Of a stretch of 64,000 bases of DNA, positions 5,142-37,083 are shown piece by piece (positions within the stretch are counted from its first letter, which is position 1; the number at the start of each line of letters is the position of its first letter). The notes beneath the pieces are model-generated. The model was not told the DNA's origin, did no database searches, and saw only the letters and a program-made list of their open reading frames with translations. The stretch comes from Streptococcus pneumoniae (lineage in GTDB: Bacteria; Bacillota; Bacilli; Lactobacillales; Streptococcaceae), in contig NZ_CRPU01000009.1 of assembly GCF_001096185.1 (NCBI RefSeq), positions 1 through 64,000 of the forward strand, written 5' to 3'. Both the position numbers and the translations under genes were made by a program.

Positions 5142-5149
5142 TCCGAATA
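5142..5149 (+). promoter_or_regulatory. ComX (cin) box of the dut-radA operon
   Basis: TCCGAATA preceded by a T-rich tract, a one-base variant of the cin consensus TACGAATA. It stands about 46 bases upstream of dut. The dut-radA operon is a known late-competence unit in pneumococcus. Confidence 0.82.
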
Positions 5150-5197
5150 AATAAGATAGAATAATCTAGAATAAATGATAATAGAAAAGAGAAGATG

Positions 5198-27107: not shown

Positions 27108-27239
27108 TTGCTTTAAATGACCGTTTAGGAACAGATTTAGTCTTTCTAGGGACAGGAGAAATCTGAGGACAAATAGGGGATATAATGGAGTTAGAAAAAA
27201 TTAATCTCCAAAAAGGAGAAAAAAGAAAGGATTTTTATG

Positions 27240-28091
27240 ATGAAAAAATATCTTTATTCTAGTTTGTTAGTTCTTGCAGGAGGCGTTCTCCTAGCAAATA
27301 CTACGGTAGCCTATGCTGATTCCCCATCAGCAAGTGAGAAAGAAGCGATTGCTCAATTAGTTAATCAAGGCAAGATAAAAGCTGAAGAAGCTGATCAAGT
27401 AAAATTGATTGGTTTTGAAGATAAAGAAACTCAAGCAGAGGGCAATCAAGAGAAGAAAGCTTTCAATCAATATCGTGATCCGAAAGGAACATGGATGCAA
27501 ACCAATAGTAAATGGTGGTTTAAATACGGTTCAGGTGGGTATGCTAAAAATTGGGAACAATTAGATGGCAAGTGGTACTATTTTGATGACCAAGGATGGA
27601 TGAAAGAAAATACTTGGATTCAACCTGATGGCAATTATTACTACTTATCTGCTAGTGGTGCTATGGTCACTGGTTATCAACGTGTGAATGGTACACCATA
27701 TTTCTTTAGAGAAAGTGGTGTATGGGTAGAAAATCGTGGGCAAGCTCTTGGTGAATACGCAGAGACATTTGTAGGAAGAATTCCATATGTTTGGGGTGGG
27801 GCAGATTTGAATAGTGGCGTAGATTGCTCAGGATTTACGATGGCTATTCATGCTAAGTTTGATATTAGTATTCCTAGAGTAACCTATGGTCAAGCAACAG
27901 GAGGAAGTTATGTAAGTAATGGTTCTCAACAAGCTGGAGATTTGATTTTGTATAATAGTGAAGAGACAAATGACCATGTAGGTATTTATGTTGGTGGTGG
28001 AAAGGTAGTTCATGCTCCATATCCGGGTCAATATGTTTCTTATATGAATCAATACGGTATTACTCAAAATACAATTCGTAGATATTGGTAA
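27240..28091 (+). CDS. Choline-binding NlpC/P60 peptidoglycan hydrolase
   Basis: A 283-residue secreted enzyme. The signal peptide (residues 1-26) and a short charged linker precede about four choline-binding repeats in the middle (TWMQTNSKWWFKYGSGG to TPYFFRESG). A C-terminal NlpC/P60 domain follows (about residues 168-283), with catalytic Cys in VDCSGFTMA and His in NDHVGIYVGGG, and the entry motif VGRIPYVWGG. Such enzymes cut between D-Glu and the third residue or cross-links of the stem peptide. The order repeats-then-catalytic domain differs from LytA. It has its own TATAAT promoter near 27180. Confidence 0.85.
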   Translation: MKKYLYSSLLVLAGGVLLANTTVAYADSPSASEKEAIAQLVNQGKIKAEEADQVKLIGFEDKETQAEGNQEKKAFNQYRDPKGTWMQTNSKWWFKYGSGGYAKNWEQLDGKWYYFDDQGWMKENTWIQPDGNYYYLSASGAMVTGYQRVNGTPYFFRESGVWVENRGQALGEYAETFVGRIPYVWGGADLNSGVDCSGFTMAIHAKFDISIPRVTYGQATGGSYVSNGSQQAGDLILYNSEETNDHVGIYVGGGKVVHAPYPGQYVSYMNQYGITQNTIRRYW

Positions 28092-28203
28092 TATTGTCTA
28101 ATTTTTCACAATATTATTGACTTTGACTATGAAAAGTATTAGAATATAGCTAAATAAAGAGGGGAAGCCCTCCTATAGCTATTCAATAAAGGAGGAAATG
28201 GCT

Positions 28204-29373
28204 ATGAAAAAATCTAAACTACTTACACTTGGTTTGCTTGCAGGTGCTGGTCTACTTTTGTCTATCAACCAAGCACAGGCTGCAGATACTTGGGTTAAAA
28301 ATGGTGCTGACTGGAATCTTTCTCAAGATGGCAGTCTAGCTAAGGATAAATGGGTACAAAATGCTGGGTCATGGTATCACTTCGACAGCACTGGTAAAAT
28401 GCAGACAGGCTGGTTCAAAGATGGGAACACTTGGTATTCACTAGCAAATAGTGGCGCCATGCGTACTGGCTGGTACAAGGAAGATGGCACATGGTACTCC
28501 CTAGCAGATAGTGGCGCCATGCGTACAGGTTGGTACAAAGAAGGGTCTACATGGTATTACCTCAAAGACAGTGGCGCTATGGCAACAGGATGGGCGACTG
28601 CAAATGGTCAATGGTCTTACTTTGAAAAATCAGGTGCAATGGTCGCAGACAGAGCTGTTCCAGCCAGTGATGGGGAAAGTTATGTCATTGGTAAGGATGG
28701 CTATCTAGCAAATAGAAAAGATGCTGGATACAGTATTCATGATATTGTCAAACTTGGAGATGGGCAAGAATATTTGCTAAATGCTAAAGGTGACGATGTT
28801 ATTATTGAAAAAAATGCTTGGTATATCAGACCAGAGTTCAAGAAGTTTTCTAATAAATATGGGGATGAGGTTGCAAATACTACCTTAGCTTTAGTGGATA
28901 ATAAAGAAGAAGGACAAGAAATTGATCCTAAGGCAGTTGTACAGAACTTCCAAAACTTACCAAATCGCTACTACTTTGATGAAAATGGACATCGTGTGAT
29001 TAATATCCCAGCAATGACAACCTATTCAGAGATTAAAAAAGTTGGCAATGATGTCTATTTAGAAAATCCAGGTGCACGACTTCGTCTTGGAGCTACCCAC
29101 TTTACAATCAATAACAATAAACTATACTATTTAGAAAATGAGCAAGGTAAGCTCAAAACAGGTTACTTTGTATTGATTGATGATGGTATGGCTACAACCC
29201 ACTATCACATCCTAGCCTATGCGGATCAATCTGGTGAAATTCTTAAGATGAAACGCTTGCCATCAGGAGTTTCAGATTATCTGGATAAAGAAATCGATGG
29301 TTTATATGGTGAAAAAATTAAAATTGAATCTCCACACTCAAACGAATATTATAAAGTGGTTGTGGTTAAATAA
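28204..29373 (+). CDS. Choline-binding surface protein 6, unknown head domain
   Basis: A 389-residue exported protein. The signal peptide (MKKSKLLTLGLLAGAGLLL..., to AQAAD) is followed at once by about six N-terminal choline-binding repeats (residues 25-160). A C-terminal domain of about 220 residues that I do not recognise follows (from ASDGESYVIGKDGYLANR to the end). Repeats first, function second is the reverse of the four proteins at 11-18 kb. The start is ATG 28204 (8 bases after AAAGGAGG); ATG 28198 is too close. A terminator follows at 29430-29472. Confidence 0.83.
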   Translation: MKKSKLLTLGLLAGAGLLLSINQAQAADTWVKNGADWNLSQDGSLAKDKWVQNAGSWYHFDSTGKMQTGWFKDGNTWYSLANSGAMRTGWYKEDGTWYSLADSGAMRTGWYKEGSTWYYLKDSGAMATGWATANGQWSYFEKSGAMVADRAVPASDGESYVIGKDGYLANRKDAGYSIHDIVKLGDGQEYLLNAKGDDVIIEKNAWYIRPEFKKFSNKYGDEVANTTLALVDNKEEGQEIDPKAVVQNFQNLPNRYYFDENGHRVINIPAMTTYSEIKKVGNDVYLENPGARLRLGATHFTINNNKLYYLENEQGKLKTGYFVLIDDGMATTHYHILAYADQSGEILKMKRLPSGVSDYLDKEIDGLYGEKIKIESPHSNEYYKVVVVK

Positions 29374-29429
29374 AAATAACATCTTCACAACTAATCGTTA
29401 ACGCTCTAACCAATATACCATTTTCAGGA

Positions 29430-29472
29430 GGCTTTAGATTTCTTGTATTTTAAAAGGAAACTAAAGCCTTTT
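29430..29472 (+). terminator. Terminator between CBP 6 and the pheromone gene
   Basis: GGCTTTAG-ATTTC / GAAA-CTAAAGCC stem followed by TTTT. It separates the following signalling unit from read-through. Confidence 0.78.
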
Positions 29473-29525
29473 GTAGATGGAGCAGGGGATAGAGTTATCT
29501 ATAAAATAATGAAAAGGAGTCTGTC

Positions 29526-29687
29526 ATGGAAATGAAAAATACATTTGTAGAATTGGAACAATTTGAAGAGTTAACCCCAGAGGTTTTGAAGGAAGTGAAT
29601 GGTGGAGGGAATTTCTTTTGTTCTTTGTTTGGGCTTTGCCAACCTCGGTATTGCAGTCCAGCACCAACTAACACTGTGATTGGATAG
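29526..29687 (+). CDS. Double-glycine leader peptide, putative pheromone
   Basis: A 53-residue peptide. The leader MEMKNTFVELEQFEELTPEVLKEVNGG (27 residues) has the hydrophobic spacing and terminal Gly-Gly of ComA/BlpA-type substrates. The predicted mature part is 26 residues, GNFFCSLFGLCQP...TVIG, with three cysteines. AAAGGAGT precedes the ATG, and the histidine kinase gene starts two bases after the stop. Position and size suggest the autoinducing signal of the kinase, in the manner of ComC or BlpC. Three Cys are unusual for such pheromones and might mean disulfide formation or modification. A bacteriocin is the alternative. Confidence 0.7.
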   Translation: MEMKNTFVELEQFEELTPEVLKEVNGGGNFFCSLFGLCQPRYCSPAPTNTVIG

Positions 29688-29688
29688 T

Positions 29689-31023
29689 ATGGTTTTGACT
29701 TTTATTAAGGAGATTCTATTTGCTTTATTGCTGATGGTTTCCATTATAGTTCCTCCAATTTATCTAGGTTACCAAATTATACCGGAATTTCGTAAAAAGA
29801 GATACATAGTCTATTTATTAATGATGCAAGTAATAGCTGGTAAAACTTTTTTTGAAATTATGTATTTGGAAGTTTTAATCTTTTTTTACCTTATTTTCTA
29901 TATGAATAGGAAGAAAAAGGGGGAATCGTTATTTCTTTCATTCTATCTTTTTAGTTTTTATCAGAGTATTCGCTATTTATTGGTATTGTTCTATATTCGG
30001 ATGTTAGATATAGATATGCTATCAGAAGTAGGAAATGGTATTGTTAATTCTTCTTTTTCTCTACTAGCTCTTGTACTGACAGTAGTTATGATGAAGCGTT
30101 GTTCTTTGGATTTGGATTTATTCTTTTCAGATACTTTCAAAACCCACTATTATAAGAGTTTTTTCATTATCCTACCTCTGACTGGATTTAGGATATTCTC
30201 TTCGTTTATGACCAATAGAAATTGTTCTTTCTACGTTCGATTTGATACGACCATTTCTCTCTTGATTTTCATTCTCTTTTTCTCTTGGCTCTTTTACATC
30301 AAGCATTTGGAGCAGGCTTATCGTGATGAGCAGACCATTCAGAGACAGGAAGAAGAAAATCGTTCTTTGCAAGGAATGGTGGATAAGCTAGGTAATCTCT
30401 ATGATGAAGTTCGAGGTTTCCGTCATGATTTTGCGGGGATTGTCGCCAGCATGGAGCCTGCCATAGCCAATCAAGACATGACTGAGGTTTCTACTATTTA
30501 TCAAGATGTCTTTCTAAAGACCAATGAAAAGCTGAGAAAGGCGGACTACACGGCCTTTAATCTTCATAATATCCAAGATATAGCCATTCGTAATACCTTG
30601 GCAAAATCCATGATTGTGGCAGATAATCAGGGAATTCATTTTAGTTTGGAGACGGTGGGGGTTGTCGAAGAGCTGGCTTTGCCGATGTTGGAGGCTATTC
30701 GTATCCTCTCTATCCTCACGACAAATGCCTTAGAGGCAGCTAGTGAGGCAGAAAATCCGCAGATTCGGGTTGCTTTATTGGCAAGTGATAGGAGTGTCCG
30801 TTTTATCATTGAAAACACTCGTAAGAAAGAAGAACTGAATCCCAGCATTCTCAGTCAAAAGGGGTATTCTACCAAGGGTAACCACAGTGGACTGGGCTTA
30901 GCGACCTTGGAAGATATGGTTTTCCATTATGATTTAAACTTAGATACCCAGCTAGGAGAGACGACTTTTAGACAAGATTTAGAATTGCCGTTTAAGGATG
31001 AGAAACGAGGGGGAGAGGAATGA
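29689..31023 (+). CDS. HPK10-type sensor histidine kinase (ComD/BlpH-like)
   Basis: A 444-residue sensor. The first about 200 residues hold six or so membrane segments, the peptide-sensing part in this family. A coiled region follows, then the phospho-acceptor His246 in GFRHDFAGIV. The GHKL ATPase has an N box (ILTTNALEAASEAE) and a G box (KGNHSGLGLATLEDM). The His-Asp-Phe order is typical of HPK10 kinases responding to peptides. The true start is ATG 29689, just after the pheromone gene; an in-frame TTG at 29680 would overlap it. The stop overlaps the regulator start (ATGA). Confidence 0.88.
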   Translation: MVLTFIKEILFALLLMVSIIVPPIYLGYQIIPEFRKKRYIVYLLMMQVIAGKTFFEIMYLEVLIFFYLIFYMNRKKKGESLFLSFYLFSFYQSIRYLLVLFYIRMLDIDMLSEVGNGIVNSSFSLLALVLTVVMMKRCSLDLDLFFSDTFKTHYYKSFFIILPLTGFRIFSSFMTNRNCSFYVRFDTTISLLIFILFFSWLFYIKHLEQAYRDEQTIQRQEEENRSLQGMVDKLGNLYDEVRGFRHDFAGIVASMEPAIANQDMTEVSTIYQDVFLKTNEKLRKADYTAFNLHNIQDIAIRNTLAKSMIVADNQGIHFSLETVGVVEELALPMLEAIRILSILTTNALEAASEAENPQIRVALLASDRSVRFIIENTRKKEELNPSILSQKGYSTKGNHSGLGLATLEDMVFHYDLNLDTQLGETTFRQDLELPFKDEKRGGEE

Positions 31024-31751
31024 GAATTTTAGTTTTGGAAGACGATAGAGTCCAGCAAGGACGGATAGAGCAGACGTTACTAGATATTGGTCGCTCTCGC
31101 AATTTAAGATTGGAAATTGATATTGCCAAAAACTATGGAGATGTTGAAAAGTATTCTCAGTATTTTGACCATTACCAGCTCTATTTATTGGATTTAGAGG
31201 TTGATGGAGAGCGTGAACGGGGCTTTCAGGTTGCTCAACAGGTTCGGGAGCGGGATCCTTTTACAAGCATTGTCTTTGTGTCCACGCACTCGGAGGCCTT
31301 GCCTCTAGCTTTTCGCTACCACTTGTCTGCCTTGGATTTTATTTCCAAGGATCAGCCAGAGGCGGACTACTGTCATCAGCTGGAGCGCTGTCTGGACTAT
31401 GTACTGGCAGTGGATAAGAGGGAAAATATGCGTCTCTTTACCTATAGTTTTGAGGGAAGACGGGGCTTTACTCTGCCCTACCATGAGATTTTAGCCTTTG
31501 AAACCTCAGTGGAATCCCATCGTATCAAGGTCTATTATGCCAATCATTCTATCAAGACCATTTACGGCAGTCTCAAGGATATCGCTGCCAAGGCTGAAAA
31601 AGATTACTTTGTTTATGCCAATCGCAATACTTTAGTCAGTTTACAGGCCATTGAAGAGATGACTGCGACAGAAGTGACCTTGTTAGAAGGCTTGCACTTC
31701 CCCGTATCACGAACAGCCAGAAGAACCCTTAAAAAACATCTCAACGTCTAA
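31020..31751 (+). CDS. LytTR response regulator (ComE/BlpR-like)
   Basis: A 243-residue regulator. The receiver domain (1 to about 125) has acidic Asp9-Asp10 (VLEDDR) and the phospho-acceptor Asp58 in YLLDLEVDG, with a conserved Ser/Thr-Lys (THSEALPL, ISKDQ). The C-terminal LytTR DNA-binding domain runs from about residue 140 (YSFEGRRGFTLPYHEILAFE) to the end (FPVSRTARRTLKKHL). It is partner of the kinase upstream. Its targets are not identified: I see no convincing pair of ComE/BlpR-type repeats in front of the pheromone or bacteriocin genes. Confidence 0.88.
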   Translation: MRILVLEDDRVQQGRIEQTLLDIGRSRNLRLEIDIAKNYGDVEKYSQYFDHYQLYLLDLEVDGERERGFQVAQQVRERDPFTSIVFVSTHSEALPLAFRYHLSALDFISKDQPEADYCHQLERCLDYVLAVDKRENMRLFTYSFEGRRGFTLPYHEILAFETSVESHRIKVYYANHSIKTIYGSLKDIAAKAEKDYFVYANRNTLVSLQAIEEMTATEVTLLEGLHFPVSRTARRTLKKHLNV

Positions 31752-31778: not shown

Positions 31779-31819
31779 AATAAGAATGTCGGAAAATTTT
31801 CTGATATTCTTATTTTTTT
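31779..31819 (+). terminator. Terminator of the pheromone-kinase-regulator unit
   Basis: AATAAGAAT...ATTCTTATT stem with a long T run. The micro-ORF array begins directly after, so the array needs its own promoters; the T run contributes to the T-rich tract before the first cin box. Confidence 0.82.
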
Positions 31820-31828
31820 GACTTCTTT

Positions 31829-31836
31829 TTCGAATA
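31829..31836 (+). promoter_or_regulatory. cin box, array unit 1
   Basis: TTCGAATA preceded by TTTTTTTGACTTCTTT. It differs from consensus TACGAATA by one base. Confidence 0.78.
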
Positions 31837-31870
31837 GATAAGTAAGAGGAAAAAGAAAGGAGTCTAATTC

Positions 31871-31921
31871 ATGTATCTACCAATTTTTTATCCGTGGTTT
31901 GCTAAATTATTTTTTAAATAA
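31871..31921 (+). CDS. Micro-ORF 1, aromatic cationic peptide (type A)
   Basis: Encodes MYLPIFYPWFAKLFFK, 16 residues. Seven residues are aromatic and two are lysines; there are no acidic residues, no signal peptide and no Gly-Gly leader. The ribosome site AAAGGAGT lies eight bases before the ATG. The peptide is too short for known leaderless bacteriocins (usually 30-60 residues) and does not match XIP, SHP or PapR pheromones that I know. Possible roles are membrane-active peptide, intracellular signal or small toxin. Expression should follow ComX, so it would appear in late competence. Function unknown. Confidence 0.72.
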   Translation: MYLPIFYPWFAKLFFK

Positions 31922-31953
31922 ATTTAATTTAGTTGTACGTTTTCGAAATTTTT

Positions 31954-31961
31954 TTCGAATA
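31954..31961 (+). promoter_or_regulatory. cin box, array unit 2
   Basis: TTCGAATA after TTTTCGAAATTTTT. A second partial box (TTTCGAAAT) lies 14-15 bases upstream, as in units 3 and 5. Confidence 0.78.
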
Positions 31962-31996
31962 GATAAGTGAGAAGGAAAAGGAAAGGAGTTTGCTTC

Positions 31997-32047
31997 ATGT
32001 ATCTACCGATTTTCTATTCATGGTACATTAAATTATTTTTTAAATAA
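31997..32047 (+). CDS. Micro-ORF 2, aromatic peptide (type B)
   Basis: Encodes MYLPIFYSWYIKLFFK. Relative to type A, Pro8 becomes Ser, Phe10 Tyr and Ala11 Ile; all other positions are kept, some through synonymous codons (CCG for CCA, TTC for TTT). The ribosome site AAAGGAGT lies nine bases from the ATG. Confidence 0.7.
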   Translation: MYLPIFYSWYIKLFFK

Positions 32048-32080
32048 AATTTAATTTAGTTGTACATTTTCGAAATTTTT

Positions 32081-32088
32081 TTCGAATA
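32081..32088 (+). promoter_or_regulatory. cin box, array unit 3
   Basis: TTCGAATA followed by AATAAGTGAGAAGG. Confidence 0.78.
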
Positions 32089-32122
32089 AATAAGTGAGAA
32101 GGAAAAGGAAGGAGTTTACTTC

Positions 32123-32173
32123 ATGTATCTACCAATTTTTTATCCGTGGTTTACTAAATTATTTTTCAAATAA
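32123..32173 (+). CDS. Micro-ORF 3, aromatic peptide (type A)
   Basis: Encodes MYLPIFYPWFTKLFFK, differing from unit 1 only at residue 11 (Thr for Ala). GAAGGAGT ribosome site. Confidence 0.7.
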   Translation: MYLPIFYPWFTKLFFK

Positions 32174-32205
32174 ATTTAATTTAGTTGTACATTTTCGAAT
32201 TATTT

Positions 32206-32213
32206 TTCGAATA
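32206..32213 (+). promoter_or_regulatory. cin box, array unit 4
   Basis: TTCGAATA after TTTTCGAATTATTTT. The promoter is intact although the ORF start is lost. Confidence 0.76.
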
Positions 32214-32247
32214 GATAAGTAAGAGGAAACAGAAAGGAGTCTGGCTT

Positions 32248-32298
32248 ACGTATCTACCAATTTTCTATTCATGGTACATTAAATTATTTTTCAAATAA
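32248..32298 (+). pseudogene. Micro-ORF 4, start codon ATG changed to ACG
   Basis: The frame would read xYLPIFYSWYIKLFFK (type B) and is otherwise intact, with cin box and AAAGGAGT, but the first codon is ACG. No ATG, GTG or TTG lies in frame upstream. Either it is silent or it is translated poorly from a near-cognate start. Confidence 0.7.
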
Positions 32299-32330
32299 AT
32301 TTAATTTAGTTGTACATTTTCGAAATTTTT

Positions 32331-32338
32331 TTCGAATA
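32331..32338 (+). promoter_or_regulatory. cin box, array unit 5
   Basis: TTCGAATA after TTTTCGAAATTTTT. Confidence 0.78.
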
Positions 32339-32372
32339 GATAAGTGAGAGAAAAAAGAAAGGAGTCTGGTTT

Positions 32373-32423
32373 ATGTATCTACCGATTTTCTATTCATGGT
32401 ACATTAAATTATTTTTTAAATAA
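32373..32423 (+). CDS. Micro-ORF 5, aromatic peptide (type B)
   Basis: Encodes MYLPIFYSWYIKLFFK, the same peptide as unit 2. AAAGGAGT ribosome site ten bases before the ATG. Confidence 0.7.
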   Translation: MYLPIFYSWYIKLFFK

Positions 32424-32456
32424 AATTTAATTTAGTTGTTCATTTTCGAATTATTT

Positions 32457-32464
32457 TTCGAATA
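32457..32464 (+). promoter_or_regulatory. cin box, array unit 6
   Basis: TTCGAATA after CGAATTATTTT. Confidence 0.78.
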
Positions 32465-32497
32465 AATAAGTGAGACGAAAAGGAAGGAGACTACGCG

Positions 32498-32548
32498 ATG
32501 TATTTACCAATCTTATTGCCATGGTTTATCAAATGGTATTTGAAATAA
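32498..32548 (+). CDS. Micro-ORF 6, diverged peptide (type C)
   Basis: Encodes MYLPILLPWFIKWYLK. Length, both lysines, Pro4, Pro8 and Trp9 are kept, while six other positions change to other hydrophobic residues. This conservative pattern supports selection on the peptide. GAAGGAGA ribosome site nine bases before the ATG. Confidence 0.7.
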   Translation: MYLPILLPWFIKWYLK

Positions 32549-32615
32549 ATGAAATTTACCTGTTCATTTTAAATCACTTCTCAAATAGATAAGTGAGACG
32601 AAAAGGAATTCAGTA

Positions 32616-32663
32616 ATTTATCTATTCTGGTTTTTAAAATGGTTTAAGAGCCAGAAATCGTAA
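32616..32663 (+). pseudogene. Relic of a seventh micro-ORF
   Basis: The sequence reads IYLFWFLKWFKSQKS then TAA, with ATT in place of ATG. The preceding box has decayed to TCTCAAATA, while the spacer AGATAAGTGAGACGAAAAGG is still recognisable. It marks the ancestral end of the array. Confidence 0.55.
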
Positions 32664-32905: not shown

Positions 32906-33112
32906 ATGAAATTTGTTAAATTAATGTTGAAGATTTGGCCTGAGCTTATGGTATTACTTAGTTCAATATCTTATACAATTATCAGGTTGGTAGCTGATGT
33001 GAATAAGCTACCCTTACCTACATGGTTTGATGATTTTAATATACCAACAATTTCATTGTTTTTAATGGTATTCATTTTATTATATAGAAGTAAAGGAGAA
33101 AAGAATGGATAA
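32906..33112 (+). CDS. Small membrane protein, putative bacteriocin immunity 1
   Basis: A 68-residue protein with two membrane segments (ELMVLLSSISYTIIRLVAD and PTISLFLMVFILLY) and a basic tail. It lies between two double-glycine peptide genes and overlaps the second by eight bases, so an immunity role is likely. A close paralogue is at 33818-34024. No strong ribosome site is seen, which suggests translation coupled to the upstream bacteriocin gene 14 bases away. Confidence 0.7.
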   Translation: MKFVKLMLKIWPELMVLLSSISYTIIRLVADVNKLPLPTWFDDFNIPTISLFLMVFILLYRSKGEKNG

Positions 33113-33817: not shown

Positions 33818-34024
33818 ATGAAATTTGTTAAATCAATACTGAAAGTTTGGCCTGAAATCATGGTATTACTTAGTTCAATGTCTTATATCATCATCAGATT
33901 AGTAGCTGATATGAATAAAGTATCTTTACCTACTTGGTTTGATAGTTTCAATATACCAACGATTGCATTATTTGTGATGGTCTTCATTCTTTTATACAGA
34001 AGTAAAGAAAAAAAGAATGGATAA
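33818..34024 (+). CDS. Small membrane protein, paralogue of immunity 1
   Basis: A 68-residue protein about 80% identical by eye to the gene at 32906-33112 (MKFVKSILKVWPEIMVLLSS, ..., FNIPTIALFVMVFILLY). The repeated block includes the overlap with a following bacteriocin start, so a cassette duplication took place. The start is ATG 33818 behind TTGGAG. It has outlived its own bacteriocin, which is broken, and may protect against a sibling strain's peptide. Confidence 0.7.
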   Translation: MKFVKSILKVWPEIMVLLSSMSYIIIRLVADMNKVSLPTWFDSFNIPTIALFVMVFILLYRSKEKKNG

Positions 34025-34911: not shown

Positions 34912-34929
34912 TAGGAAAAGGAGATGGAT

Positions 34930-37083
34930 ATGAAATTTGGGAAACGTCACTATCGTCCGCAGGTGGATCAGATGGACTGCGGTGTAGCTTCATTAGCCAT
35001 GGTTTTTGGCTACTATGGTAGTTATTATTCTTTGGCTCACTTGCGAGAATTGGCTAAGACGACCATGGATGGGACGACGGCTTTGGGCTTGGTCAAGGTG
35101 GCAGAGGAGATTGGCTTTGAGACGCGAGCAATTAAGGCGGATATGACGCTCTTTGACTTGCCAGATTTGACTTTTCCTTTTGTTGCCCATGTGCTTAAGG
35201 AAGGAAAATTGCTCCACTACTATGTGGTGACTGGGCAGGATAAGGATAGCATTCATATTGCCGATCCAGATCCTGGGGTAAAATTGACCAAACTGCCACG
35301 TGAGCGTTTTGCGGAAGAATGGACAGGAGTGACTCTTTTTATGGCACCTAGTCCAGACTACAAGCCTCATAAGGATCAAAAGAATGGTCTGCTCTCTTTT
35401 ATCCCTATATTAGTGAAGCAGCGTGGCTTGATTGCCAATATCGTTTTGGCAACACTCTTGGTAACCTTGATTAACATTGTGGGTTCTTATTATTTGCAGT
35501 CTATCATTGATACCTATGTGCCAGATCAGATGCGTTCGACGCTTGGGATTATTTCTATTGGGCTGGTTATCGTCTATATTCTCCAGCAGATCTTGTCTTA
35601 TGCTCAGGAGTATCTCTTACTTGTTTTGGGGCAACGCTTGTCGATTGATGTGATTTTGTCCTATATCAAGCATGTTTTTCACTTGCCTATGTCCTTTTTT
35701 GCGACACGTCGGACAGGGGAAATCGTGTCTCGTTTCACGGATGCTAACAGTATTATCGATGCGCTGGCTTCGACCATTCTTTCGATTTTCCTAGATGTGT
35801 CAACGGTTGTCATTATTTCCCTTGTTTTATTTTCACAAAATACCAATCTCTTTTTCATGACCTTATTGGCACTTCCTATCTATACAGTGATTATCTTTGC
35901 TTTTATGAAGCCGTTTGAAAAGATGAATCGGGATACCATGGAAGCCAATGCGGTTCTGTCTTCCTCTATCATCGAGGATATCAACGGTATTGAGACTATC
36001 AAGTCCTTGACCAGTGAGAGTCAGCGCTACCAAAAAATTGACAAGGAATTTGTGGATTATCTGAAAAAATCCTTTACCTATAGTCGAGCAGAGAGTCAGC
36101 AAAAGGCTCTGAAAAAAGTTGCCCATCTCTTGCTCAATGTCGGTATTCTATGGATGGGGGCTGTTCTGGTCATGGATGGCAAGATGAGTTTGGGGCAGTT
36201 GATTACCTATAATACCTTACTGGTTTACTTTACCAATCCTCTGGAAAATATCATCAATCTGCAAACTAAACTTCAGACAGCGCAGGTTGCCAATAACCGT
36301 CTGAATGAGGTTTATCTGGTAGCTTCTGAGTTTGAGGAGAAGAAAACGGTCGAGGATTTGAGCTTGATGAAGGGAGATATGGACTTCAAGCAGGTTTACT
36401 ATAAGTATGGCTATGGTCGAGATGTCTTGTCGGATATCAATTTGACTATTCCCCAAGGTTCTAAGGTGGCTTTTGTGGGGATTTCAGGGTCAGGTAAGAC
36501 GACCTTGGCCAAGATGATGGTTAATTTTTACGACCCTAGTCAGGGAGAGATTAGTCTGGGTGGTGTCAATCTCAATCAGATTGATAAAAAGGCTCTGCGC
36601 CAGTACATCAACTACCTGCCTCAACAGCCCTATGTCTTTAACGGAACGATTTTGGAGAATCTTCTTTTGGGAGCCAAGGAGGGGACGACTCAGGAGGATA
36701 TTTTACGGGCGGTCGAATTGGCAGAGATTCGGGAGGATATCGAACGCATGCCATTGAATTATCAGACAGAATTGACTTCGGATGGAGCGGGGATCTCAGG
36801 TGGTCAACGTCAGAGAATCGCTCTAGCGCGTGCTCTCTTGACAGATGCGCCGGTTTTGATTTTGGATGAGGCGACCAGCAGTTTGGATATTTTGACAGAG
36901 AAGCGGATTGTAGATAATCTTATGGCTTTAGACAAGACCTTGATTTTCATCGCCCACCGCTTGACCATTGCAGAGCGGACAGAGAAGGTTGTTGTCTTGG
37001 ATCAGGGCAAGATTGTCGAAGAAGGAAAGCATGCTGATTTGCTTGCACAGGGTGGCTTTTACGCCCATTTGGTGAATAGCTAG
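34930..37083 (+). CDS. comA: Competence peptide/bacteriocin ABC exporter with peptidase ComA
   Basis: A 717-residue exporter that cleaves double-glycine leaders and exports CSP, and in pneumococcus also Blp-type peptides. The C39 peptidase domain (1 to about 140) has the catalytic Cys in QMDCGVASLAM and the His in HYYVVTGQD. Six membrane helices span about 165-440. The ATPase has Walker A GISGSGKTT, signature ISGGQRQR and Walker B VLILDEA. The start was set at ATG 34930 (MKFGKRHYRPQ), the family length; ATG 34924 is in frame. Adjacent double-glycine peptides are plausible clients. Confidence 0.96.
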   Translation: MKFGKRHYRPQVDQMDCGVASLAMVFGYYGSYYSLAHLRELAKTTMDGTTALGLVKVAEEIGFETRAIKADMTLFDLPDLTFPFVAHVLKEGKLLHYYVVTGQDKDSIHIADPDPGVKLTKLPRERFAEEWTGVTLFMAPSPDYKPHKDQKNGLLSFIPILVKQRGLIANIVLATLLVTLINIVGSYYLQSIIDTYVPDQMRSTLGIISIGLVIVYILQQILSYAQEYLLLVLGQRLSIDVILSYIKHVFHLPMSFFATRRTGEIVSRFTDANSIIDALASTILSIFLDVSTVVIISLVLFSQNTNLFFMTLLALPIYTVIIFAFMKPFEKMNRDTMEANAVLSSSIIEDINGIETIKSLTSESQRYQKIDKEFVDYLKKSFTYSRAESQQKALKKVAHLLLNVGILWMGAVLVMDGKMSLGQLITYNTLLVYFTNPLENIINLQTKLQTAQVANNRLNEVYLVASEFEEKKTVEDLSLMKGDMDFKQVYYKYGYGRDVLSDINLTIPQGSKVAFVGISGSGKTTLAKMMVNFYDPSQGEISLGGVNLNQIDKKALRQYINYLPQQPYVFNGTILENLLLGAKEGTTQEDILRAVELAEIREDIERMPLNYQTELTSDGAGISGGQRQRIALARALLTDAPVLILDEATSSLDILTEKRIVDNLMALDKTLIFIAHRLTIAERTEKVVVLDQGKIVEEGKHADLLAQGGFYAHLVNS

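What the first reader, a model, noticed from the sequence alone, without database searches (positions are those of the whole stretch)
31822..32663. Tandem array of ComX-box-driven 16-residue peptides
Six 125/126-bp units each hold a TTCGAATA cin box after a T-rich tract, a strong ribosome site, and a 16-codon ORF for an aromatic, lysine-bearing peptide (MYLPIFYPWFAKLFFK and variants). ORF length, both lysines and Trp9 are constant in the five intact copies, while synonymous positions and a few hydrophobic positions vary. A terminator separates the array from the upstream kinase/regulator unit, so each unit appears to be its own competence-induced transcript start. I know of no described peptide family like this. 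It could be a membrane-active fratricide peptide, a dosage-amplified signal, or a toxin. Function is unknown; the promoter and coding reading is inference from pattern.
Basis: partly seen in the sequence, partly recalled or inferred. Interest (0 to 1): 0.92.

Follow-up and report, generated by a model that had tools for sequence, protein, structure and literature searches.

The report
Hidden 16-residue peptide genes in competence promoters
In mouth and throat streptococci, a row of repeated switches already known to turn on killing peptides while the cell takes up DNA also appears to be a row of tiny protein genes, each for a conserved 16-residue membrane-seeking peptide of unknown function.

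Summary
The array is real: six 125-127 bp units, five intact 16-codon ORFs, one copy with ATG changed to ACG, and a dead seventh unit. It is not an orphan. It is the leader of a competence-associated bacteriocin ("cab") operon upstream of comAB in a Streptococcus mitis-like genome. Published work on relatives already shows that such loci carry tandem TTCGAATA SigX boxes, are induced by CSP through SigX, and that extra boxes raise expression (PMC6001120, PMC13059744).

In the passages I read, neither paper mentions an ORF inside the units; the later one scanned ORFs of 100-300 nt with a GG motif. The new part is that each box looks like the promoter of a mini-gene. Such ORFs occur in 76 of 284 held Streptococcus genomes (reversed-pattern control 0 of 284). 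The commonest layout is an ordered trio P1-P2-P3 between acpP and the bacteriocin. Start, stop, length and ribosome site are mostly kept, and P1 changes mainly at third codon positions (p about 0.001). Evidence is weaker for P2; P3 shows no significant constraint and 15 of 59 copies are broken.

Most likely these are leaderless membrane peptides made with the Cab bacteriocins. Coding is well supported; function is inference.

The parts
31779..31814 (+). terminator-like hairpin after the response-regulator gene; the T-rich stretch after it is also the T-rich tract of the first SigX box
31829..31836 (+). SigX box 1 (TTCGAATA)
31871..31921 (+). sORF 1, A-type, MYLPIFYPWFAKLFFK
31954..31961 (+). 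SigX box 2
31997..32047 (+). sORF 2, A-type, MYLPIFYSWYIKLFFK
32081..32088 (+). SigX box 3
32123..32173 (+). sORF 3, A-type, MYLPIFYPWFTKLFFK
32206..32213 (+). SigX box 4
32248..32298 (+). sORF 4, A-type, begins ACG where the others have ATG; rest of frame open
32331..32338 (+). SigX box 5
32373..32423 (+). sORF 5, A-type, MYLPIFYSWYIKLFFK
32457..32464 (+). SigX box 6; 229 nt lie between it and the bacteriocin ATG, the distance published for S. mitis SK321
32498..32548 (+). sORF 6, P2-type, MYLPILLPWFIKWYLK, the same peptide in 21 of 36 distinct P2 units
32580..32660 (+). dead seventh unit: box mutated to CTCAAATA, P3-type peptide frame without start codon
32694..32891 (+). GG-leader class IIb bacteriocin (cab gene), the first gene the array leads into
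34924..37083 (+). comA, peptide cleavage/export ABC transporter (TIGR01193), the conserved downstream flank of the locus
29680..31751 (+). AgrC-like histidine kinase and LytTR response regulator; seen at 25 of 85 sORF loci, so not an obligate partner

Best explanation
Each unit is a complete mini-gene: a SigX promoter, a strong ribosome site and a 16-17-codon ORF. The likely ancestral layout is an ordered trio of different peptides (P1, P2, P3), each with its own SigX box, lying between acpP and the cab bacteriocin operon upstream of comAB. In S. mitis-like strains the units have been multiplied into arrays (A type), probably by unequal exchange. When the cell becomes competent, SigX starts transcripts at the boxes; these read through the array into the bacteriocin genes, so the array both boosts cab expression in cis (shown by others in strain G22) and should yield many copies of the peptides (inferred). 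The peptides have no leader, are rich in F/W/Y, mostly carry two positive charges and are calculated to partition strongly to membrane interfaces. The most likely role is as leaderless, membrane-active accessory peptides of competence-time predation, acting in or delivered from the competent cell alongside Cab bacteriocins. Shown here: anatomy, spread, order and coding-type conservation. Shown by others in relatives: CSP/SigX control and the cis effect. Inferred: translation, membrane action, role in predation. My confidence is about 0.85 for the ORFs being real genes; the figure below is for the whole statement.
For: Promoter: and PMC6001120/PMC13059744. Spread: 76 of 284 genus genomes match the P1/A/P2 pattern and 24 of 284 the P3 pattern, reversed controls 0 of 284 each; all 27 named stretches that share the box-leader DNA hold at least one such ORF; a pattern without the box gave 14 matches in 9 of 59 relatives, all units of this family, and none in the 23 genomes outside the genus. 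Coding: pN/pS 0.17 (P1), 0.29 (A), 0.29 (P2), 0.34 (P3); P1 parsimony changes 23/13/67 at codon positions 1/2/3, p 0.0012, 36 amino-acid among 83 codon changes where about 83% would be expected without constraint; P2 p 0.022; P1-P3 combined p 0.0004. Intactness, found by profile whatever the ORF state: A 88 intact and 2 not, P1 44 and 2, P2 33 and 0 (one P1 and one P2 with N set aside). GGAG before the start in 199 of 204 distinct units, spacing 8 in 163. Order exactly 1-2-3 in 18 loci, 1-2 in 8, 1-3 in 7. A GG-leader ORF follows the last sORF in 78 of 84 loci with sORFs (4 stretches too short, 2 without). Membrane: Wimley-White interface sums -5.4 to -7.5 kcal/mol for ten peptides, each within the lowest 1% of 3634 16-mers from long window ORFs.
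Against: No transcript start, ribosome footprint or peptide has been measured. Synthetic CabA plus CabB alone kill pneumococci (PMC13059744, section 9), so the 16-mers are not needed for that activity. A common variant, MFISMFYPWFTELFFK, has net charge 0, which fits a cationic lytic peptide poorly. P3 constraint is not significant (p 0.13; 43 of 58 codon changes alter the residue) and 15 of 59 distinct P3 copies are not intact. The window's own array holds one copy without ATG and a dead P3. The A type was tested by pN/pS only. No exporter for leaderless peptides was seen among ten neighbouring proteins scanned.
Confidence: 0.42

Rival explanations
1. The sORFs are translated leader ORFs whose act of translation tunes stability or translation of the long cab mRNA; the peptide itself matters little.
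For: They lie upstream of a GG-leader ORF in 78 of 84 loci with sORFs, have a mostly uniform pitch of 122-127 bp, and P3 stops 32-44 nt before the next ORF of over 40 codons in 42 of 43 units.
Against: Amino-acid sequence is constrained more than a mere translated spacer needs (P1). No stop-start overlap at P3, no terminator-like site within the array on the scan, and no marked structure common to the units folded (units 1, 2, 3, 5, 6 and the dead unit; z-scores -0.1 to -3.4, one of six below -3; unit 4 was not folded).
Confidence: 0.2
2. Self-acting membrane toxin: the peptides act inside the competent cell, as in type I toxin-antitoxin systems, to stall division or release DNA and bacteriocin.
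For: Tiny hydrophobic peptides in tandem copies resemble Ldr/Ibs-type arrays (recalled). Strong calculated membrane partition.
Against: No sigma-70-like promoter on the opposite strand within the array (a crude scan). Tandem multiplication of an uncontrolled toxin gene would be costly (argument, not tested).
Confidence: 0.15
3. Signal peptides: the short hydrophobic peptides are exported and sensed, dosage being raised by copy number.
For: Size and hydrophobicity recall SHP/ComS pheromones (recalled); an AgrC-like kinase lies next to the window's array.
Against: Kinase/regulator genes were seen at only 25 of 85 sORF loci; no Rgg-like gene among the ten neighbouring proteins scanned; the peptides lack the charged N-terminus of SHPs (recalled).
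Confidence: 0.12
4. Only the promoters matter: the array is a cis-acting SigX-box amplifier and the ORFs are hitch-hikers of the duplicated DNA.
For: Removing four of five boxes lowers cab expression (PMC13059744, section 6); the authors suggest repeats accumulate by recombination. P3 behaves much as this predicts (15 of 59 copies broken, no significant constraint).
Against: Third-position bias in P1 and P2, intact starts and stops in 165 of 169 distinct P1, A and P2 copies, P1-P3 kept as distinct paralogues in order. By simulation only 42% of such ORFs would stay intact at 10% neutral divergence.
Confidence: 0.11

Closest known systems
cab / cib-like competence-associated bacteriocin locus of S. 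mitis (PMC6001120; PMC13059744)
   Same: Same place (plsX-acpP to comAB), same tandem TTCGAATA SigX boxes, same GG-leader bacteriocins. The published SK321 box-to-ATG distance of 229 equals the window's P2 box to bacteriocin ATG; NCTC12261's box -33- ATG with a 20-residue mature peptide fits the GG-peptide unit seen in relatives (inference from distances; I did not hold those two genomes by name).
   Different: The passages read treat the repeats as promoter copies only; the ORF search in the later paper required 100-300 nt and a GG motif, so 51-nt ORFs were outside it.
rio3/rio4 small ORFs of S. pneumoniae D39 (PMC9426450)
   Same: Small ORFs found by Ribo-RET in the pneumococcal interval sp_0041-sp_0042, just upstream of comA; translation of rio3 was also shown there by a fusion.
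   Different: Different sequences and length (11 and 28 aa); no YPW, PWF, IWLF or KWF string occurs in that paper's main text.
Type I toxin arrays such as Ldr/Ibs (recalled)
   Same: Tandem copies of very short hydrophobic peptides.
   Different: Here each copy has a competence promoter and no antisense promoter was found on the scan.
Leaderless bacteriocins and phenol-soluble modulins (recalled)
   Same: No leader, membrane-seeking, often several related peptides side by side.
   Different: Those are about 20-50 residues with dedicated exporters and immunity (recalled); these are 16-17 residues with neither identified.

Membership tests
SigX (ComX) late-competence promoter | NNCGAATA box after a T-rich tract, shared with late competence genes | tested here: met
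   published sites in PMC6001120 Table 4
SigX (ComX) late-competence promoter | CSP-induced, SigX-dependent transcript from these boxes | not testable with these tools
   Shown by others for NCTC12261 and G22 at the orthologous locus, not for this strain
Cab/Cib class IIb bacteriocin | double-glycine leader for ComAB processing | tested here: not met
   The family ORFs found are 16-17 codons without a GG motif (lists of peptides); the gene downstream (32694) meets it
Type I toxin-antitoxin | antisense RNA transcribed against the toxin mRNA | tested here: inconclusive
   No sigma-70-like promoter on the minus strand inside 31822-32663; consensus scan only
Rgg/SHP or ComRS pheromone | adjacent Rgg-type receptor gene | tested here: not met
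   None among ten neighbouring proteins scanned against Pfam and NCBIfam
Ligand of the adjacent AgrC-like kinase | kinase present wherever the peptides are | tested here: not met
   HK/RR seen at 25 of 85 sORF loci. Many stretches had short flanks, so 25 is a lower bound; among 51 loci where acpP was in view 42 begin with P1 and carry no HK/RR
Leaderless bacteriocin / membrane-active peptide | membrane partition | tested here: met
Leaderless bacteriocin / membrane-active peptide | killing activity, export and immunity | not testable with these tools
   needs synthetic peptide and mutants
Protein-coding gene | codon-phase constraint, conserved start, stop and ribosome site | tested here: met
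   P1 strong, P2 moderate, A by pN/pS and intactness only; P3 alone would not meet it

The most novel reading that the evidence does not exclude
The tandem SigX boxes of cab loci are not just promoter repeats but the promoters of a hidden, ordered set of three paralogous 16-17-residue peptide genes, shared by S. mitis, S. oralis, S. infantis and S. pseudopneumoniae relatives. Together they would form a leaderless multi-peptide membrane system of competence, one of the shortest gene-encoded effector sets known, amplified by copy number in some strains.
Probability: 0.27. Interest if true: 0.85.

Novelty: new variant of a known kind. Interest (0 to 1): 0.66.

Why it matters
The cab locus is an active topic: in S. 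mitis G22 it drives contact-dependent killing of pneumococci and gene transfer (PMC13059744). Its repeated SigX boxes were reported without a clear explanation in 2018 and as expression amplifiers in 2026. If each box also serves a conserved peptide gene, then reporter and deletion constructs at this locus may remove or keep a second product unnoticed, and a family of 16-residue competence peptides becomes directly testable with start-codon mutants and synthetic peptides. It also shows how ORF length cut-offs hide genes inside what looks like promoter DNA.

Tried and rejected
Considered and set aside: chance repeats; incidental ORFs in duplicated promoter DNA (P3 is the exception and looks largely relaxed); ligand of the neighbouring kinase; an intrinsic terminator or attenuator within units (AU-rich pairing around the stop of the A-type units folded, absent in the P2 unit). 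RNA families: the five Rfam matches in the window are all elsewhere. Peptides are shorter than the lower limits of the protein-family, solved-structure and structure-prediction tools, so none was run on them. Print: searches; none of the listings showed a description of these peptides, but subscription papers are largely absent from that library. Papers: PMC6001120 passages plus sections 8 (part 1 of 2) and 10; PMC13059744 outline with abstract, passages and sections 5, 6, 8, 9, 12 and 23; PMC11921387, PMC9426450 and PMC6328492 passages only; the rest as search listings.

Limits of the counts: loci were chosen by DNA similarity to this array, and the 85 sORF loci (of 86 examined) overlap and are not independent (some genomes gave two). 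The output was cut, so the rows L040-L043 were not seen in full there. The list of matches was capped; the tallies are complete. Pairwise pN/pS values are not independent; one off-frame control (P2, +2) could not be computed, and for P3 the +1 frame (0.40) is hardly above the true frame (0.34). Units were typed by simple rules; a few A rows resemble P1. An earlier census (201 intact, 17 GG peptide, 8 broken, 16 other of 242 unit-like boxes) used a motif that misfiled some units; I replaced it by the profile census. A P1 start in L027 that runs into other sequence is too short for that profile and is not counted. The permutation test treats columns as independent, and the sORFs may recombine relative to the plsX-acpP tree. 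After the recount of P3 (15 of 59 not intact) I lowered the novel-case probability from 0.30 to 0.27.

Full report
What is there. The array is at 31829-32548 with a dead seventh unit from 32580 to about 32660. Six exact TTCGAATA boxes at 125-127 bp pitch are each followed by GGAG and, 8 nt on, a start position; five ORFs of 16 codons are intact and the fourth begins ACG. Upstream is a terminator-like hairpin (31779-31814) after an AgrC-like kinase and a LytTR regulator (the AgrC match is below the curated cut-off). Downstream, with no terminator-like site in between on the scan, is a class IIb GG-leader bacteriocin gene (32694), small ORFs and comA (34924).

What locus it is. Gene order plsX, acpP..., bacteriocin..., comAB identifies the competence-associated bacteriocin (cab) locus of S. 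mitis. PMC6001120 reported TTCGAATA boxes there, two in NCTC12261 and three in SK321, CSP induction in both strains, and SigX dependence by RT-PCR in the type strain, and said there was no clear explanation for the multiple boxes. Its SK321 box lies 229 nt before the bacteriocin ATG, exactly the distance between box 6 and the bacteriocin ATG here, that is, spanning the P2 ORF and the P3 unit. PMC13059744 showed that a five-box cab promoter in strain G22 needs comE and sigX, that cutting it to one box lowers expression, that loci carry up to 38 boxes, and that CabAB inhibits pneumococci on contact and lyses them. Its ORF scan took 100-300 nt with a GG motif, so 51-nt ORFs were outside it. A term search of its main text found no uORF, short peptide or leaderless.

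Promoter identity. Apart from the array itself the only match in the window's genome is the promoter of a gene whose product reads as the competence single-strand-binding protein (ssbB), TACGAATAGATAAGTAGGAGG. Of 13 short-match stretches fetched from other streptococcal genomes, several show TTCGAATA boxes before genes that read as dprA, comGA, cinA and ssbB (names recalled from N-termini; the stretches were chosen because they matched the array).

The ORFs as a family. Of 284 held Streptococcus genomes 155 match the array DNA at E<=0.001, many only at the promoter. A box-plus-ORF pattern finds P1/A/P2 ORFs in 76 of 284 and P3 ORFs in 24 of 284, with the reversed pattern in none. In the named collection the box-leader pattern gave 27 stretches, labelled S. 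mitis, S. pseudopneumoniae, S. infantis, S. oralis, S. thalassemiae, Streptococcus sp. and one S. pneumoniae 19F whose label I could not check; each of the 27 holds at least one family ORF. The S. infantis stretches and the S. oralis one show the trio; the S. mitis and S. pseudopneumoniae ones mostly show A-type rows. A pattern without the box gave 14 matches in 9 of 59 relatives, all in units of this family, and 0 of 23 genomes from outside the genus. Four sequence types recur: P1 (MYVTGFYPWFIKWFLK and kin; box TACGAATA or TGCGAATA), A (MYLPIFYPWFTKLFFK and kin), P2 (MYLPILLPWFIKWYLK and kin) and P3 (MISVIYPIWFLKWFKA, MIISAIYPTWLFKWLRG and kin), 204 distinct units in all. The commonest order is P1-P2-P3: 18 loci, with exactly 1-2 in 8 and 1-3 in 7; of 51 loci with acpP in view 42 begin with P1. 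A GG-leader ORF follows the last sORF in 78 of 84 loci with sORFs; four stretches were too short and two (L077, L086) showed none. A-type peptides look like P2 at the N-terminus and P1 at the C-terminus, which suggests origin by unequal exchange (inference). In this window no box follows acpP, so P1 is missing there.

Coding evidence. Pairwise pN/pS is 0.17 for P1 (26 distinct ORFs), 0.29 for A (31), 0.29 for P2 (9) and 0.34 for P3 (15); the off-frame ratios that could be computed are higher, though only slightly for P3 at +1 (0.40). On a tree from the neighbouring plsX-acpP DNA, P1 changes fall 23, 13 and 67 on codon positions 1, 2 and 3 (43 loci, p 0.0012), P2 3, 2 and 12 (25 loci, p 0.022), P3 18, 21 and 34 (29 loci, p 0.13, not significant); combined p 0.0004 (P1 alone). 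Amino-acid changes are 36 of 83 codon changes in P1 and 6 of 15 in P2, but 43 of 58 in P3, against about 80-83% expected without constraint. Y2, Y7, W9, I11, F14 and K16 never vary among 43 P1 loci. GGAG stands before the start in 199 of 204 units. A profile search that ignores the ORF state found A 88 intact and 2 not, P1 44 and 2, P2 33 and 0, P3 44 and 15, with one P1 and one P2 holding N set aside (112 loci). So 165 of 169 P1, A and P2 copies are intact, while a substitution-only simulation leaves 42% intact at 10% divergence and 19% at 20%. P3 is decaying in a quarter of copies, the window's among them; its lesion is shared with several relatives.

What the peptides may do. They lack leaders; the ten examined carry 4-7 aromatic residues, nine have net charge +2 and one common variant 0, and their calculated interface free energies of -5.4 to -7.5 kcal/mol lie in the lowest 1% of 3634 background 16-mers. 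I therefore favour a membrane-acting accessory peptide of competence predation. The case is not closed: synthetic CabAB works without them, and whether they leave the cell is unknown. The array's cis effect on cab expression is established by others and can coexist with a peptide role.

Verdict. The promoter reading is right and, for relatives, already shown. The locus is known; the embedded peptide genes appear to be unreported in the library searched. I file this as a new variant of a known kind: a competence bacteriocin locus whose promoter repeats double as mini-genes.

Noticed in passing
27237-31751: Two choline-binding protein genes (27237, 28198), an AgrC-like histidine kinase (TTG start) and a LytTR regulator sit between acpP and the array; in 42 of 51 loci with acpP in view the first thing of this family after acpP is P1 instead.
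   Followed up: partly
32906-33112 and 33818-34024: Two similar small membrane-protein-like ORFs (about 68-69 aa) with no Pfam or NCBIfam match, probably bacteriocin immunity genes (inference).
   Followed up: no
L010, L014, L057, L063 and others: A 42-aa GG-leader peptide (MKEHYYGF...GG, 20-residue mature part) often stands behind the last box of the array at the same 33-35 nt spacing; it fits the 20-residue mature peptide published for NCTC12261.
   Followed up: partly
5142-5156: TCCGAATA-type SigX box before the ORF at 5195 that reads as dUTPase, as published for dut.
   Followed up: no
2585-2827: 80-aa ORF upstream of purA that looks like ComW (recalled, by position and sequence).
   Followed up: no
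31901-31933 and the like in other A units: AU-rich complementary arms straddle the stop codon of A-type ORFs; absent in the P2 unit; meaning unknown.
   Followed up: partly
878-2056: Transposase-like ORF (resembles the IS30 family, recalled) between the rRNA/tRNA end and the competence genes.
   Followed up: no
32580-32660; L003, L004, L006, L007, L017: P3 units share a start-codon lesion (leader reading GGAATTCAG), in several cases together with a box mutated to CTCAAATA, suggesting one old loss spread by descent or exchange.
   Followed up: no
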